A DNA stretch of 64,000 bases from Cladophialophora immunda (lineage: Eukaryota; Ascomycota; Eurotiomycetes; Chaetothyriales; Herpotrichiellaceae): the NCBI RefSeq assembly GCF_000835495.1, contig NW_015622545.1, forward strand, positions 1,364,001 to 1,428,000. The letters are read 5' to 3'. The notes beneath the pieces are model-generated. The model made no database searches and was not told the origin of the DNA. It saw only the letters and a program-made list of their open reading frames with translations. A program made the translations under genes and the position numbers. This document shows positions 1 through 64,000 of the stretch, one piece after another; positions within the stretch are counted from its first letter, which is position 1; the number at the start of each line of letters is the position of its first letter.

Positions 1-221
1 AGCCTGCTGGGGCAACGGGGATGTTGTTGGCTGTTCCGGCTGCTCTTTGTGGAAAACATGGACTTTGCCCGATCGGTGGTGGGTGTCGGTGGGCCTTTGT
101 CACGGCGAGGTAGGCGCTGATCATCTTGAGCTTCACGTTGTTCGGGAAATACCCGTCCAAGGAAGTCGACGACGTGATGCTGCCCCTCGGCGGCTGGATC
201 GACTCAGTCTCGCCCACCCAT

Positions 222-720
222 CCACGTCTTACAGATGCTGGTCCAGTGCTTGACCCGGTGCGACGGATCGCGTTTACTACCCAGCAGGATCACGCGGTCC
301 TCGGGGATGTTGGACATCTTGGCCGCCTTTAGGGCCGTGGGCAGGAAGTCCGTCGCCGTCACGATCGCCTTGGACCCAGAGTTGGATAGCTGGAAGGACA
401 GCTCGTCGGCCGAATACGCGGGGTTCGCGGGCGATATGATGCCGCTAGCGAAGAAGACGCCATAGATAGACGATGGGGGTAAAGTCGACGTCGTTGGATG
501 CGTAGATGTTCAGCACGTCGCCCTTCCCCCGGTCCCGGAGGTTGCGTAGACCGCCTCCAAACGCCGCAGCGGCTTCTTTGACATCGGCCCACGTGTAGTG
601 CCGCGACGAGTCTCGTGGAACACTGCAAGGCACATTGAGCGGGCCGTCCAAAACGATCCAGTCCAACATGCGACAAATGCAAGACACGCGGAAGGTGGTT
701 TCTGGTTTCCACAATCAGCG
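222..720 (-). pseudogene. 4-coumarate-CoA-ligase-like (AMP-binding) relic
   Basis: Two adjacent reading frames on the minus strand read like the N-terminal part of a fungal acyl/aryl-CoA ligase of the AMP-binding superfamily. The first (about 714 to 460) contains YTWADVKEAA and an ending like DFTPIVY. The second (about 460 to 222) continues with ASGIISPANPAYSADEL and DRVILLGS. In the family this section follows the start and precedes the P-loop SSGTTGLPKG, which I could not find, so the catalytic half is absent. The frame change near 460 and the lost C terminus make it non-functional. It lies directly downstream of the polyubiquitin relic on the same strand. The family call is from motif resemblance; substrate is unknown. 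Confidence 0.6.
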
Positions 721-967
721 TGGTGTGGTCAAACAGATGCAATTCCAGTCGCAGACCCACCAAAATCAGTTCCGGAAGTACCAGGCAGAAGCTCTCCCTT
801 TGTAGAAGCAGACATCCCAAACCATGAGCTGTTCTGCAGACCTTCCTGGCCGAGACGAAACGGTTCTGACCAGTGACGCTGGCTGCTGACCTCGTGAATC
901 ATGGAAAGTTGCTGCTTGACACAAAGGGCCACGGGGCCAACGGGGACGAAGCCGCAATTCGCGAGAA

Positions 968-1408
968 TCTGCATGCCGCCGCGGAGGCGGGGCACGAGAT
1001 GGAGCGTCGATTCCTTCTGGATGTTGTAGTCGGACCTGGTGCGGCCGTCCTCCAGCTGCTTGCCCGCAAAGATCAGGCGCTGCTGGTCGGATGTGATCCC
1101 TTCCTTGTCCTAAATCTTGCTCTTGATGTTGTTGATTGTGTCGCTCGACTCAACCTCCAGCGTGATCGTCTTGACAGTAAGTGTCTTCATGAAAATCTGC
1201 ATGCCGCCACGCAGGTGGATGACCGGGTGCAGGGTCGAGTCCTTCTGGATGTTGTAGTCGGACCTGGTGCGGCCATCATCGAGTTGCTTGCCGGCGAAGA
1301 TCAGGCGCTGCTGTTCGGGCGGAATGCCCTCCTTGTCCTGGATCTTGGATTTCGCTGGACTCGACCTCAAGCGTGATGGTCTTGCCAGTAAGTGTCTTGC
1401 GCAACGCA
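968..1408 (-). pseudogene. Polyubiquitin relic, two damaged units
   Basis: The minus strand encodes about two head-to-tail ubiquitin units, each ending in the LRGG-MQI junction typical of polyubiquitin precursors (LRGGMQIF is visible). The upstream unit reads [15 protein letters not shown] and then loses about 17 nt near 1353, jumping frame to [13 protein letters not shown]. The downstream unit has a stop (1110-1112) at the Gln of the usual KIQDKEG, which fits CAG to TAG. Several normally invariant residues differ. After the second unit the frame runs into unrelated sequence. Ubiquitin is among the most conserved proteins known, so these changes mean the copy is dead. The family assignment is near certain. 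Confidence 0.9.
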
Positions 1409-60338: not shown

Positions 60339-60400
60339 GTAGGTTTCTATGACTAGACCATCAGCCATAATGCCACCTAGAGCGGGACTTTCAAGCATTG

Positions 60401-60500
60401 AAGTTGCCAAAGTCAAAAAGTTGTAAAAGTCGAAAGGTTTGGCGATCAAACACACACTCGACGGGCACTCCCAGAACTTCAACTTTTTCCCCGGCGCAGA
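60401..60500. repeat. Composite repeat B, inverted copy
   Basis: Reverse-complement orientation: aagttgccaaagtcaaaaag, gcgatcaaacacacactcga, gggcactcccagaacttcaa. Includes both the end module and the 'aagttctgggagtgcc' module, confirming that they belong together. Confidence 0.85.
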
Positions 60501-62590
60501 CCTATCCACTCACTCACTCACTCAGCGCAGCTAGTCTACCGCTGTCTCGGCAGGGCACTCCTGGACTTGACTTGGTTCTCGACGCAGACTCGAAATATCC
60601 TCCATCTCCGCGCATACCCGACCAGTTTCTTCTCCAGGACCATCTTGCTTTCCGCTTCCTTGCCCAACGGACCCGTCGCCGATCAGGAAGACACTTCTCA
60701 GACCGACCATAATGTGAATGTTGGTCAATGTCTGCATTGATGGAGTTCGGCTGGACTTTCTCATTCGGCCCAACCGTTGAGATGGAGGGGTTGTCGATGC
60801 CTTTGACACTCTTGGTCAACGCGGCGAGCGAGGTCGTGTCGAAGATGTCGGTACGGTCCTCGCCACTAAGGTGACGAACATCCTCCGAGGATGAAGGCGC
60901 TTTCACAAAAGGCTCAACCAGCAAAACTGAAAAGGCCAGCACGGCGGTCAATACGATTTCCACTTCCACGAGCTTAACCAGCAAGATCCCCCTCGAGTCC
61001 TTCGGTGGCTTCGTCCACCGCGTGAGCCCCAAGGCTGTGCTGGAGACTCCGCCGGAAGAGCGAGAAGCGTTGTCTTTTTATTTTTCACAACCCCGCGTCC
61101 TTGAGACTTCGCTCAATGGCCTTCTTGCGCGGCGCGTCAGGCACCAACAACTTCTGCTCCTTCAAGACGGCTCCAGGAGTATCAACAGCTTTGTAAAAAC
61201 TGCTCGCTGCTCCCTTCTCCTATGTAAACATCATAGTGCTCAAATTAGCTTTTCGACCGTGTTCACGGACCGCGCCCTGCAGGAGCGCGTCAAGTTGTTC
61301 CTGGGAGCTGCGGCACAAAAAGTGCCAATGTTGCGGACGTGGAGGGTCTTCTCGAGGACGAAGAGGAAGAATTCAAAGCCGGCATACGCAGAACGCTCAT
61401 CCCTATTGAATACAACGCCTCGACGACTGCGGGAATCCTGGAATGTGGTCAGCAGCGGCTCGGAAAGCATCGAAGTCTTTGTATATTTCAATGTATGACA
61501 CTGGCCGAGCGCGTGCCAGTTTTAATAAAAGCTATCCGGTCCATTACCAAAGCAGCAGTTCAGCTCTGGCGACAAGTGCTGGTCGAATGGACGGCTTTCC
61601 GATCCAGCATGCCTCCAAGGCTGCTCCAGATGGAGGAAACATCGAGTCCAAGTGATGTCACTCTTTGGATCTGACCGCATATCTTCAGGGAAGGAGTCAG
61701 GACTATGGCCGCCTACACCAGCTTCATGGCCTTCGCAGCCTATGGCACGATATCCTCTGCTGTCCTCCGAGTCTTGGAACTACATTTTGCACACGCTCAA
61801 TGGACGACGGCGAGGTATCCAAAATCTATGTCTTGCCTTCTGACAGGTTGACTTTGGCTCCTCGACTGCCTTCGAACGCTCATGTCTGGTCCGAGCTGAC
61901 CAGAGTGGATCTCAATAACCCGACTCTGAGCGCCATGAACATTATGCATACGACTATCTTCGCTCTCGCTTTCTTGACGTCCATTGGCACGTACTCGTGG
62001 TCATTGTCGGTGACACGTAATGGCTGCACAGATTTGACATTTGACGTTCGTGTTCATCATCCTCGTCAATCCCCACTCTCGCCGTTCCGCTAAAAAGAAG
62101 AGAAAAATGGCAAAATCCCGATGCACCAGAAGACGGATGTGGTGATACCTGCTCAAGCTTGCGTCAGTGGTAGCCTGCGAACAGAACAACAGGGCCCTGA
62201 CCTTGTCAACAAGACAAGTCGCTGGCGAGCGAACTCGGGCCCACCATCTTCGTCAGACTGTGCTTTCCCTTTCAGATGGTTAGGCCCCGTTCTCCATCAC
62301 CCAGACAATTTTCCGTCGATGATGACTGTCGCTCCAAATAGATCAAGGGCCAACTAGTCGGCAAATCACGTCAGGGTCAACTAGCTCGTCTCAACGGGGT
62401 CGACTGGTCAGGGTCCCACCACCGGGGTTTCCTCCGCTGAGTCACAAGTCTCCTGTCTCTTGCTATTGGAAGGTCTTGGCTTATACTACAGCCCGAGCGA
62501 ACTGTCATTCTTTAATCGGACACTGTACTTCCACTGGGGCGGTTTTAAGTAGCCAGCGTCCAGATGCGATACGTACGCGTCTGGTTGTAG
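60501..62590. other. Coding-like debris without names
   Basis: Minus 60514-61032 is an open frame with one membrane helix (VEIVLTAVLAFSVLLVE) and a polar remainder. Minus 61075-61190 reads AVLKEQKLLVPDAPRKKAIE. Plus 61270-61400 reads ADVEGLLEDEEEEFKAGIRR. Plus 61700-61800 reads MAAYTSFMAFAAYGTISS. All look like exon pieces in different frames; no family assigned. Confidence 0.3.
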
Positions 62591-64000
62591 AGTGCTTGAC
62601 GCGTCGCAGAGAATCTGATCCTACGGGTACACCTTTCGGATCTCCTCGAGAGCCTTCTGCTGGATTTCGGGCCGCTGTGCAAGAAGCGCCACCCCAAGTA
62701 CGCGCTCAAGATCACAGAAGAGGAGGACGGGCAGCTGACAAAAGGAGGGTAAGGGGGGCTCGGCTGGGCAAGTATGGATCGCTTCGGACGAGAGGCAGTC
62801 AAGTCAGTAGCCGATCCCAACAAAGATGTTTTGTGGGTAAAAGACGACGAGGAAACCCGCGACCGCAAGAATCCGCCTGGAGAAGTACACCGGTTGAACA
62901 GACTCGTTCTCTTCTGGGTGATTTCGTCTTCGAAACACACGTTCTCCGCTGTCAGATCCTGGATCTTCGTCTCTGTACCCAAACTCGATGGATGGGCCCA
63001 ATGGCGGAAAGCCGACCAGCAGCACACAGAATACCAACCCCAAAATCTCCTTTACAACGAAATGTCCACGTGGACCAGGCAAGGTCGAGAACCACAATCA
63101 CCTAAGCCCAACAAACATTCCACAGAAGACTCGCTGAAGGGCACAACCAATGGACTCGAAGTATCGCGCTTGTTGAGGAGTTCGAAAACCTCTTTCATCG
63201 CGAAGGACTTGACTATCCCGTCGAAACCCAGTCGGACTGGATACTCCATCATTCAGGAGGTCAATTGATCGTAGAGTCGTTTCAATTGGAAGATTGGAAG
63301 ATTGGAGCCGAGCGCAAAAGACGCTCGGCGTCTCGGCTTGCACTGACAGCACCCACCTTTGTTTTTCCCTCACCTTGAGTCTTGTTTTGATTCTCTACCT
63401 GGTTGCGATTTAGCGCTTCTGGTCGCCCGTCGCTCTGCCGCTTCTCGATGCGCTCTTCGTCGGTCTGCCCACGATGAAGGCTGTTTCTCAGGAGGCATGC
63501 TTCTGTTCTCAGATCAATCTCTCCGTGTCTAGTTGAGCCTTCTTCCCGCTAAGTCCCTCGTAGGCATTTAAGAAACTGTTTGAAGGCCAGGAAAAGGTAG
63601 ATGCGGAGAAGCCCAAGATCTGAAATTCAGGGCCTGGTCGACCCATCGCCAGAGCGCAGGTTCAGATGCGGAACGGCTTGGTATAGTCTAGCCGGCCGAG
63701 TTGTTGTATTCGCCGAAAGCCCAGAATTATGTCGGGTACTCTGCCGGTCTCTCTAGCCCGAGCGAACTGATGCCAGAGACAAGAGGAGGGGATGAGACGA
63801 CATTATGGAAGGCGGAAGTAGGCGATCCATTCAAACGGATATAATCATCACGAATTGCGTGGGTCTTGCTGAACTCGTTCTACCTCTAAGTCTTCAGCGC
63901 TGTCAAGCATTTGAACTCGGGCTCCGTCGTCGATGATGGCGATTTTGATCTCTTCTTTCAGCTGCAAGCCGTTTGCCGGCTCTGAGATCACTGCCTGGCC
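62591..64000. other. No named gene
   Basis: Plus 62640-62900 has protein-like frames (LLLDFGPLCKKRHPKYALKI, a stop, then MDRFGREAVKSVADPNKDVL). From 63300 onward only short ORFs. Nothing recognised. Confidence 0.3.

What the first reader, a model, noticed from the sequence alone, without database searches (positions are those of the whole stretch)
1..64000. A mosaic of more than twenty unrelated gene fragments
Seen: at least 20 pieces of 25-250 codons from unrelated conserved families on both strands, most cut mid-domain, several carrying stops or frameshifts, between only a few intact genes. Ordinary decay of a gene block leaves whole pseudogenes; here most pieces are single exons or less. 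Inference: an active process (gene-capturing transposon, repair with filler DNA, or repeated ectopic recombination) assembled this region.
Basis: partly seen in the sequence, partly recalled or inferred. Interest (0 to 1): 0.88.

Follow-up and report, generated by a model that had tools for sequence, protein, structure and literature searches.

The report
Chromosome region built from genome shards
A stretch of a black-yeast chromosome is a chain of at least 175 short DNA pieces, mostly 50 to 290 letters long, copied from random places on nearly every chromosome and apparently joined in one ancient burst of faulty DNA-break repair, the fossil of a kind of catastrophe recently described in cultured human cells.

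Summary
Searching the window (G000:C5:1364001-1428000 of a 42.2 Mb Cladophialophora immunda-like fungus) against its own genome finds 182 non-redundant pieces, 175 with a single source outside C5:0.72-1.82 Mb, abutting in blocks. Sources follow chromosome length (p 0.61) and are not enriched for coding sequence. A 4-kb control matched only itself.

152 pieces in nine blocks differ from their sources by 6.15%; the blocks do not differ (chi2 7.9, 8 df, p 0.44). In 20 coding pieces N/S is 0.47, with stops and frameshifts: copies of this lineage's own genes decaying neutrally, not read chimaeras. Some junctions show 1-4 bp microhomology beyond a blunt-join simulation (weaker). No end motif, no inverted repeats bracketing three blocks.

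Best explanation: break repair with short copied genomic filler in one burst (0.8), by end joining (0.5) or template switching (0.3). Closest match: human 'complex 111' (PMC13065848). Here the chains are fixed in a chromosome, recur 270 kb away, and some blocks have tight sizes (block A 138 +/- 20 bp). Transposon, cDNA and misassembly are disfavoured; other isolates could not be tested.

The parts
1..2343 (.). Block 1: 14 pieces from C1, C2, C3, C4, C6, C7. Two donor pieces (C3:5479561-5479715 and C2:2844543-2844694) are split by later insertions
   Evidence: divergence 6.2%; a continuous 398-bp match to C5:1461540-1461937 spans the C6|C3 join at 612/614
8287..12636 (.). Block A: 29 pieces, mean 138 bp, sd 20, covering 3990 of 4350 bases
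   Evidence: divergence 5.4%, homogeneous (p 0.22)
14619..18058 (.). Block B: 23 pieces of 41-287 bp; donors include an SMC-type ATPase gene (16596-16881), a Fungal_trans_2 gene (14619-14849), an SNF1-like kinase gene (15128-15196), UbiD (14851-14909) and DCP1 (15854-15977)
   Evidence: divergence 6.4% (p 0.08). Pfam domains were found in the donor ORFs, not in the pieces
21958..25245 (.). Block C: 21 pieces of 44-280 bp, covering 3093 of 3288 bases; donors include a zinc alcohol dehydrogenase gene (21958-22237), a DEP-domain gene (23695-23814) and peptidase M18 (25066-25245)
   Evidence: divergence 6.1% (p 0.21)
39840..42591 (.). Block D: 18 pieces, median 86 bp
   Evidence: divergence 6.0% (p 0.43)
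43850..44615 (.). Small block of 3 pieces
   Evidence: divergence 6.4%
50281..52079 (.). Block E: 12 pieces, median 86 bp
   Evidence: divergence 7.6%, heterogeneous (p 0.016)
53306..58890 (.). Block F: 17 realigned pieces in sub-clusters with gaps; the 16 single-source ones have mean 129 bp, sd 18
   Evidence: divergence 6.4%, heterogeneous (p 0.024)
59239..63429 (.). Block G: 15 pieces of 37-229 bp
   Evidence: divergence 6.1% (p 0.68)
2632..6438 (.). Eight scattered pieces, more diverged (13.3%, heterogeneous); set apart from the blocks

Best explanation
In one burst, an ancestor of this fungus repaired breaks in one region of chromosome C5 by stringing together many short copies of its own genome. 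Pieces mostly of 40-290 bp from random loci on nearly all chromosomes were captured in random order and orientation and joined end to end, bluntly or with a few bases of microhomology, while the donor loci stayed in place. The chains became fixed and have since decayed neutrally. Shown: the mosaic, random sampling, donors still present, one shared divergence for nine blocks, short or no microhomology. Inferred: that breaks triggered it, that one cell or a brief period was involved, and that pre-made short DNA pieces (for example displaced flaps, over-replicated or nucleosome-protected fragments, perhaps from another nucleus) were ligated by end joining rather than copied by a polymerase switching templates. 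Break repair with copied genomic filler in a burst, by either route: about 0.8. End joining of pre-made pieces: about 0.5, the figure given here.
For: 175 single-source pieces abutting in blocks. Sources follow chromosome length (p 0.61) and position (KS p 0.36, 156 pieces); 18 of 100 neighbours share a chromosome (15.5 expected) and 44 of 100 a strand. No coding enrichment. Donors intact where examined. One divergence over nine blocks, 152 pieces (p 0.44), with 2 of 106 longer pieces under 2% (1.6 expected). Neutral decay of own-lineage copies. Overlaps of 2 bp or more at 22 of 86 junctions against 8.9% in a blunt simulation, p 4e-6. Tight piece sizes in blocks A and F, CV 0.14, rejecting an exponential. 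Same-age pieces 270 kb away. Precedents: yeast dna2 and rad27 mutants (PMC11724301, passages) and wild-type Magnaporthe oryzae (PMC9684475, passages). Fungi are said to lack a clear Pol theta homolog, and canonical end joining shows up to 4 bp of microhomology (PMC9779921, passages).
Against: With a laxer aligner the junction overlaps are barely above the blunt simulation (only the 2-bp threshold, p 0.003; rank test p 0.94). Single pieces are slightly over-dispersed in age (p 0.006), and blocks E and F are heterogeneous within (p 0.016 and 0.024). Some clustering of donors within 10-20 kb fits template switching. Blocks B, C, D, E and G have broad sizes. Nucleosome signatures were not found. 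Donors within C5:0.72-1.82 Mb were excluded from the count.
Confidence: 0.5

Rival explanations
1. Replicative template switching (microhomology-mediated break-induced replication, chromoanasynthesis): a broken end copied some 50-290 bp at a time from locus after locus, producing the chains by DNA synthesis in one burst.
For: Donors are still present, so pieces were copied. Human complex 111 has 109 insertions of 21-245 bp from 18 chromosomes and is attributed to this pathway (PMC13065848, sections 6 and 7). Microhomology excess. 13 donor pairs within 10 kb against 5.4 expected, p 0.003, of five thresholds tried.
Against: Block A and F sizes are too uniform for random switching. Donor clustering is absent at 2 and 5 kb, and only 18 of 100 neighbours share a chromosome, whereas 64 of 109 insertions of complex 111 came from 19 hotspots. 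Fungi are said to lack a clear Pol theta homolog (PMC9779921, passages).
Confidence: 0.3
2. Slow accumulation: many separate small captures over a long time, plus local duplication within a repeat-rich zone.
For: Older pieces exist: 8 at 2.6-6.4 kb and 6 at 28-39 kb, both groups 13.3% diverged. Two pieces in block 1 are split by later insertions. The zone shares many diverged duplications with the window. Slight over-dispersion of ages.
Against: Nine blocks do not differ in divergence (p 0.44) and very young pieces are no commoner than one age predicts.
Confidence: 0.12
3. A gene-capturing transposon (Pack-MULE-like, Helitron-like or Starship-like) collected the pieces.
For: Such elements do carry fragments of several genes (recalled). 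The zone is repeat-rich.
Against: No end motif at 168 pieces, no inverted repeats bracketing blocks A, B or C, no transposase in 15 window ORFs scanned, and up to 29 donors in 4.4 kb.
Confidence: 0.03
4. Misassembly or chimaeric library molecules.
For: Ligated random fragments can arise in library preparation (recalled); no reads were available.
Against: Pieces are about 6% diverged, with 483 substitutions to 40 indels and transition/transversion 2.1, and codon-position bias. One junction recurs at a second locus.
Confidence: 0.02
5. Reverse-transcribed RNA pieces used as patches.
For: Proposed for human class 2 templated insertions (PMC5110952, passages).
Against: No coding enrichment; 17 of 47 pieces lie in no ORF of 200 aa or more. 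The retained-intron test was inconclusive.
Confidence: 0.03

Closest known systems
Ultra-complex insertions at human telomere fusions / chromoanasynthesis (PMC13065848, abstract and sections 6 and 7)
   Same: Chains of short pieces from many chromosomes (complex 111: 109 insertions, 21-245 bp, median 77, in 11.9 kb); junction mix 51-56% overlap, 11-16% blunt, 28-38% gaps, against 51, 16 and 33% here with the lax aligner.
   Different: Fixed in a chromosome and decayed; several blocks rather than one molecule; tight sizes in some blocks; far weaker donor hotspots; no telomere repeat found in the window. The blunt simulation already gives 44, 36 and 21% with this aligner.
Templated insertions at breaks in yeast dna2 and rad27 mutants (PMC11724301, passages)
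   Same: Copied pieces from all over the genome; medians 187 and 88 bp bracket those here.
   Different: There only 5-7% of insertions carry two or more pieces; here up to 29 lie in one block.
Break repair with DNA from other chromosomes in Magnaporthe oryzae (PMC9684475, passages)
   Same: A filamentous ascomycete without repair mutations; 2-6 bp microhomology at some joins.
   Different: Few or large inserts at a cut site, not chains of short pieces.
Human templated sequence insertion polymorphisms, class 2 (PMC5110952, passages)
   Same: Insertions templated from distant loci with end-joining marks, present in the germline.
   Different: Described in the passages seen as a patch from one distant region.
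Complex numts and nupts in plants (PMC6215612, passages)
   Same: Chains of fragments joined bluntly or with 1-7 bp microhomology.
   Different: Organellar donors; here the donors are nuclear.

Membership tests
Templated (filler-DNA) insertion | Inserted sequence matches a distant locus of the same genome | tested here: met
   175 single-source pieces
Templated (filler-DNA) insertion | Donor locus retained | tested here: met
   All counted donors are present by definition; 9 of 10 donor ORFs scanned have Pfam domains
Templated (filler-DNA) insertion | Blunt or few-bp microhomology joins | tested here: met
   Exact ends: 34 of 86 overlap, 22 by 2 bp or more, above simulation; lax ends barely above simulation
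Templated (filler-DNA) insertion | No target-site duplication at the insertion site | not testable with these tools
   The empty site in a relative is unknown; one nested insertion in block 1 has a 5-bp donor overlap, another 1 bp
Chromoanasynthesis (MM-BIR) | Many short pieces from many chromosomes joined in cis | tested here: met
   Blocks of up to 29 pieces
Chromoanasynthesis (MM-BIR) | Single event | tested here: inconclusive
   One divergence for nine blocks fits, but does not prove, one event
Chromoanasynthesis (MM-BIR) | Donor hotspots or repeated copying of one locus | tested here: inconclusive
   Excess of pairs at 10, 20 and marginally 50 kb, none at 2 and 5 kb
Chromothripsis | Pieces are missing from their original place | tested here: not met
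   Donors are present at their own loci
Gene-capturing transposon | Conserved ends or terminal inverted repeats | tested here: not met
   (blocks A, B and C only)
Gene-capturing transposon | Transposase or recombinase gene | tested here: not met
   None among 15 window ORFs scanned; the mobile partner could lie elsewhere
Complex numt | Organellar donors | tested here: not met
   Donors on C1-C9; no 100-bp stretch above 64% AT; that fungal mtDNA is AT-rich is recalled

The most novel reading that the evidence does not exclude
Nucleosome-sized shards of the genome (block A 138 +/- 20 bp, block F 129 +/- 18 bp), perhaps from a degraded nucleus or displaced replication products, were ligated in one burst into a large tract of new, heritable chromosome: a route by which a fungus builds chromosomal DNA de novo from random pieces of itself, distinct from template-switching chromoanasynthesis.
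Probability: 0.3. Interest if true: 0.93.

Novelty: new variant of a known kind. Interest (0 to 1): 0.85.

Why it matters
Ultra-complex insertions of short genomic pieces have been described in cultured human cells under telomere dysfunction and, in simpler form, in yeast repair mutants. A fixed example with at least 175 mapped pieces in 64 kb, and more 270 kb away, would show that such catastrophes can be survived and inherited in a wild eukaryote. It supplies about 100 piece-to-piece junctions on which to ask whether the pieces were pre-made (tight sizes) or copied by template switching. The method (a genome searched against itself, reading piece sizes, shared divergence and junctions) can be run on any chromosome-scale assembly to count such fossils.

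Tried and rejected
Retained intron as proof of a DNA template: two candidates came out of a pattern scan. The better one (L020, piece 15854-15977) turned out to be the coding end of DCP1 (the reading of the C-terminus is by eye) and was rejected; the other (L047) was not followed. DNA origin therefore rests on the absence of coding enrichment.

Nucleosome signature: no A/T step at piece ends over 168 pieces; in blocks A+F (46 pieces) the inside is slightly more AT than the flanks (p 0.02); WW periodicity about piece centres p 0.13. Inconclusive.

Telomere fusion scar: no run of two or more TTAGGG or CCCTAA in the window (the repeat is recalled).

Repeat-induced point mutation: CpA and CpG transitions are about equal (5.8 and 5.7%), CpC and CpT 3.5-3.8%; at most mild.

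Chimaeric ORFs in other proteomes: ORFs 23082-23807 and 53345-54079 had no hit; uninformative, since such ORFs need not be annotated.

RNA genes: no Rfam match at gathering threshold, no tRNA.

Junction expectation: my first estimate assumed simple geometric chance extension; simulation showed that a lax aligner makes many overlaps by chance, so only comparisons with simulation are used.

Literature: ten searches of the PMC library listed no report that I recognised as such a mosaic fixed in a fungal genome; only listings were seen for most papers, and most subscription papers are missing.

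Full report
What and where. The window is G000:C5:1364001-1428000 of a 42.2 Mb assembly in 39 contigs. One donor protein (L040:1309-2457) is 100% identical over 95% of the query to CLAIMM_13437 of Cladophialophora immunda, the next hits being 73-74%, so the organism is that black yeast or very close to it; this rests on one protein. The published draft of that species is 41.6 Mb (PMC4319495, whole text).

The observation. Eight searches of the window against its own genome gave 335 non-self matches. 125 fall in C5:0.72-1.82 Mb, a zone sharing many repeats and duplications with the window, and were left out of the source count; 210 fall elsewhere. 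The latter reduce to 182 non-redundant pieces (24.4 kb), 175 with a single source and 7 in dispersed repeats. Not all candidates were scored (39-40 of 46-109), so these are lower bounds. In blocks 1, A, B and C the pieces cover 88-94% of the sequence. For example, 10053-10193 comes from C3, 10193-10364 from C2, 10365-10505 from C1 and 10536-10696 from C6. A 4-kb control on C3 matched only itself.

Extent. A 3.2-kb sample at C5:1697679-1700846, 270 kb from the window, holds 12 further pieces of 64-159 bp at 90-97% identity from C2-C7, besides repeats shared with the zone. A 4-kb sample at 1.55 Mb holds two pieces of 133 and 137 bp, 3 bp apart, at 88-89%. One at 1.20 Mb holds one single-source piece (107 bp, 94%) beside a 323-bp dispersed repeat, with 40 of 80 candidates scored. 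The mosaic is thus patchy over some 0.3-0.5 Mb. A continuous 398-bp match at C5:1461540-1461937 spans the C6|C3 join of block 1 at 612/614.

Sampling. Counts per chromosome follow length (chi2 4.5, p 0.61; 169 pieces on C1-C7), positions are uniform (KS p 0.36; 156 pieces), 18 of 100 adjacent pairs share a chromosome (15.5 expected) and 44 of 100 a strand. For 47 pieces with 3-kb context, 57.5% of bases lie in ORFs of 200 aa or more against 56.7% of flanking bases. Of ten donor ORFs scanned, 9 carry Pfam domains, among them SMC_N, Fungal_trans_2, protein kinases, XPG, DEP, 2OG-FeII oxygenase, peptidase M18 and UbiD. The donors look like ordinary genes and non-coding DNA, picked at random.

Age. 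I realigned 168 of the 182 pieces: 12 sources were not fetched, one on a small contig was left out, and one piece split by a query boundary was merged. Sixteen were set apart before the age test because they lie outside the nine blocks: 8 at 2.6-6.4 kb and 6 at 28-39 kb (each group 13.3% diverged, heterogeneous) and 2 in a dispersed repeat. The remaining 152 have 1,222 mismatches in 19,880 aligned bases (6.15%). The blocks do not differ (chi2 7.9, 8 df, p 0.44). Single pieces are slightly over-dispersed (chi2 198, 151 df, p 0.006); within blocks, E and F are heterogeneous (p 0.016 and 0.024) and the other seven are not at 0.05. Different constraint on the donors may explain this. Among 106 pieces of 100 bp or more, 2 are under 2% diverged (1.6 expected) and 2 over 12% (0.7 expected). 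This fits one burst better than steady accumulation; matches down to about 70-80% identity were listed, so older pieces of this length could have been seen.

Not an artefact and not foreign. In 47 pieces there are 483 substitutions and 40 indels, transition/transversion 2.1. In the 20 of these lying wholly inside donor ORFs of 300 aa or more, codon positions 1, 2 and 3 differ by 5.5, 4.7 and 8.1%, synonymous sites by 0.102 and nonsynonymous by 0.048, with 7 stops and 11 frame-shifting indels in all. That is what a neutrally decaying copy plus a constrained donor should give. Orthologues from a sister species would be expected to show less nonsynonymous change, and chimaeric reads of this genome would be near identical to their sources.

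Sizes. Block A (29 pieces) has mean 138 bp, sd 20, CV 0.14; the 16 single-source pieces of block F also have CV 0.14. Blocks B, C, D, E and G have CV 0.37-0.60, and D and E are shorter (medians about 86). Blocks differ (Kruskal p 5e-4); A and F reject an exponential with a 28-bp floor (p 6e-6 and 6e-4), C and G weakly (0.04 and 0.02), B, D and E do not. The 138-bp mode is nucleosome-sized, but neither composition at the ends nor 10-bp periodicity (p 0.13) settles that.

Junctions. With exact-match ends, 34 of 86 junctions overlap (23% in blunt-join simulations, p 5e-4) and 22 of 86 by 2 bp or more (8.9%, p 4e-6). With a laxer aligner 49 overlap, 15 abut and 32 have gaps, of 96; the simulation gives 44, 36 and 21%, only the 2-bp threshold is in excess (p 0.003), and the rank test is null (p 0.94). 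So short microhomology is used at a minority of joins, and its strength depends on the method. There is no base preference at the ends of 168 pieces and no inverted repeat brackets blocks A, B or C. In block 1 two donor pieces are split by other pieces, one with a 5-bp overlap of donor coordinates at the split and one with 1 bp, so joining went on at least once after the first.

Donor clustering. Among 148 filtered pieces (multi-copy, split and 12.5% or more diverged ones dropped), 13 pairs lie within 10 kb of each other (5.4 expected, p 0.003), 21 within 20 kb (10.7, p 0.005) and 36 within 50 kb (26.8, p 0.05), but only 2 within 2 kb (1.1, p 0.30) and 4 within 5 kb (2.7, p 0.28); five thresholds were tried. 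Eleven of the 13 pairs do not lie within one block, which would fit blocks made in the same event from the same neighbourhoods.

Mechanism. Short copied genomic pieces joined with little or no microhomology are the mark of templated insertion. Closest is work on human telomere dysfunction: complex 111 has 109 insertions of 21-245 bp from 18 chromosomes in 11.9 kb, attributed to microhomology-mediated break-induced replication (PMC13065848, sections 6 and 7). Yeast dna2 and rad27 mutants insert pieces with medians of 187 and 88 bp, and 5-7% of insertions are complex (PMC11724301, passages). Some Magnaporthe oryzae strains fill Cas-induced breaks with DNA from other chromosomes or mitochondria (PMC9684475, passages). 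A clear Pol theta homolog is reported absent from fungi, and canonical end joining shows up to 4 bp of microhomology (PMC9779921, passages). I favour end joining of short pre-made pieces (0.5) over template switching (0.3), mainly for the tight sizes of blocks A and F and the lack of close donor clustering. Both are break repair with copied filler in a burst (0.8). What caused the breaks, and why this C5 region, is unknown; no telomere repeat was found in the window.

What remains open. No relative's genome could be searched, so the empty site and sharing among isolates are untested. Two chimaeric ORFs had no database match, which says little. The zone outside the window was sampled at four places only, and only one control region was searched.

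Noticed in passing
C5:0.72-1.82 Mb (125 of 335 matches): A roughly 1-Mb zone around the window shares many diverged duplications with it, e.g. window 38400-39836 and 58143-58834 with C5:1033415-1035410, and window 4187-4867 with 44961-45464 and C5:1246220-1248023. It may be a heterochromatic or centromere-like region.
   Followed up: partly
L071:2353-2675 (C5:1.2 Mb): A 323-bp dispersed repeat with at least 18 further near-full-length copies at 88-99% identity, solo-LTR-like in size; not classified.
   Followed up: no
window 32101-32216: A repeat of about 115 bp with 6 matches outside the C5 zone and 2 inside; no Rfam match at gathering threshold.
   Followed up: no
window 38715-39167 and 58237-58413; 19615-19891; 46776-46845: Dispersed repeats with copies on several chromosomes.
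   Followed up: no
window 22249-22418 and 60171-60343: Both match neighbouring parts of C4:4596270-4596724 and recur many times in the C5 zone, so they belong to one repeated element rather than to two captures.
   Followed up: partly
window 32244-33155 and 33554-35173, + strand: Two long open frames between blocks with no significant Pfam match; by eye they resemble Est1-type proteins (recalled, untested).
   Followed up: no
window 27566-27664: A perfect (CA)n run followed by a perfect (CT)n run.
   Followed up: no
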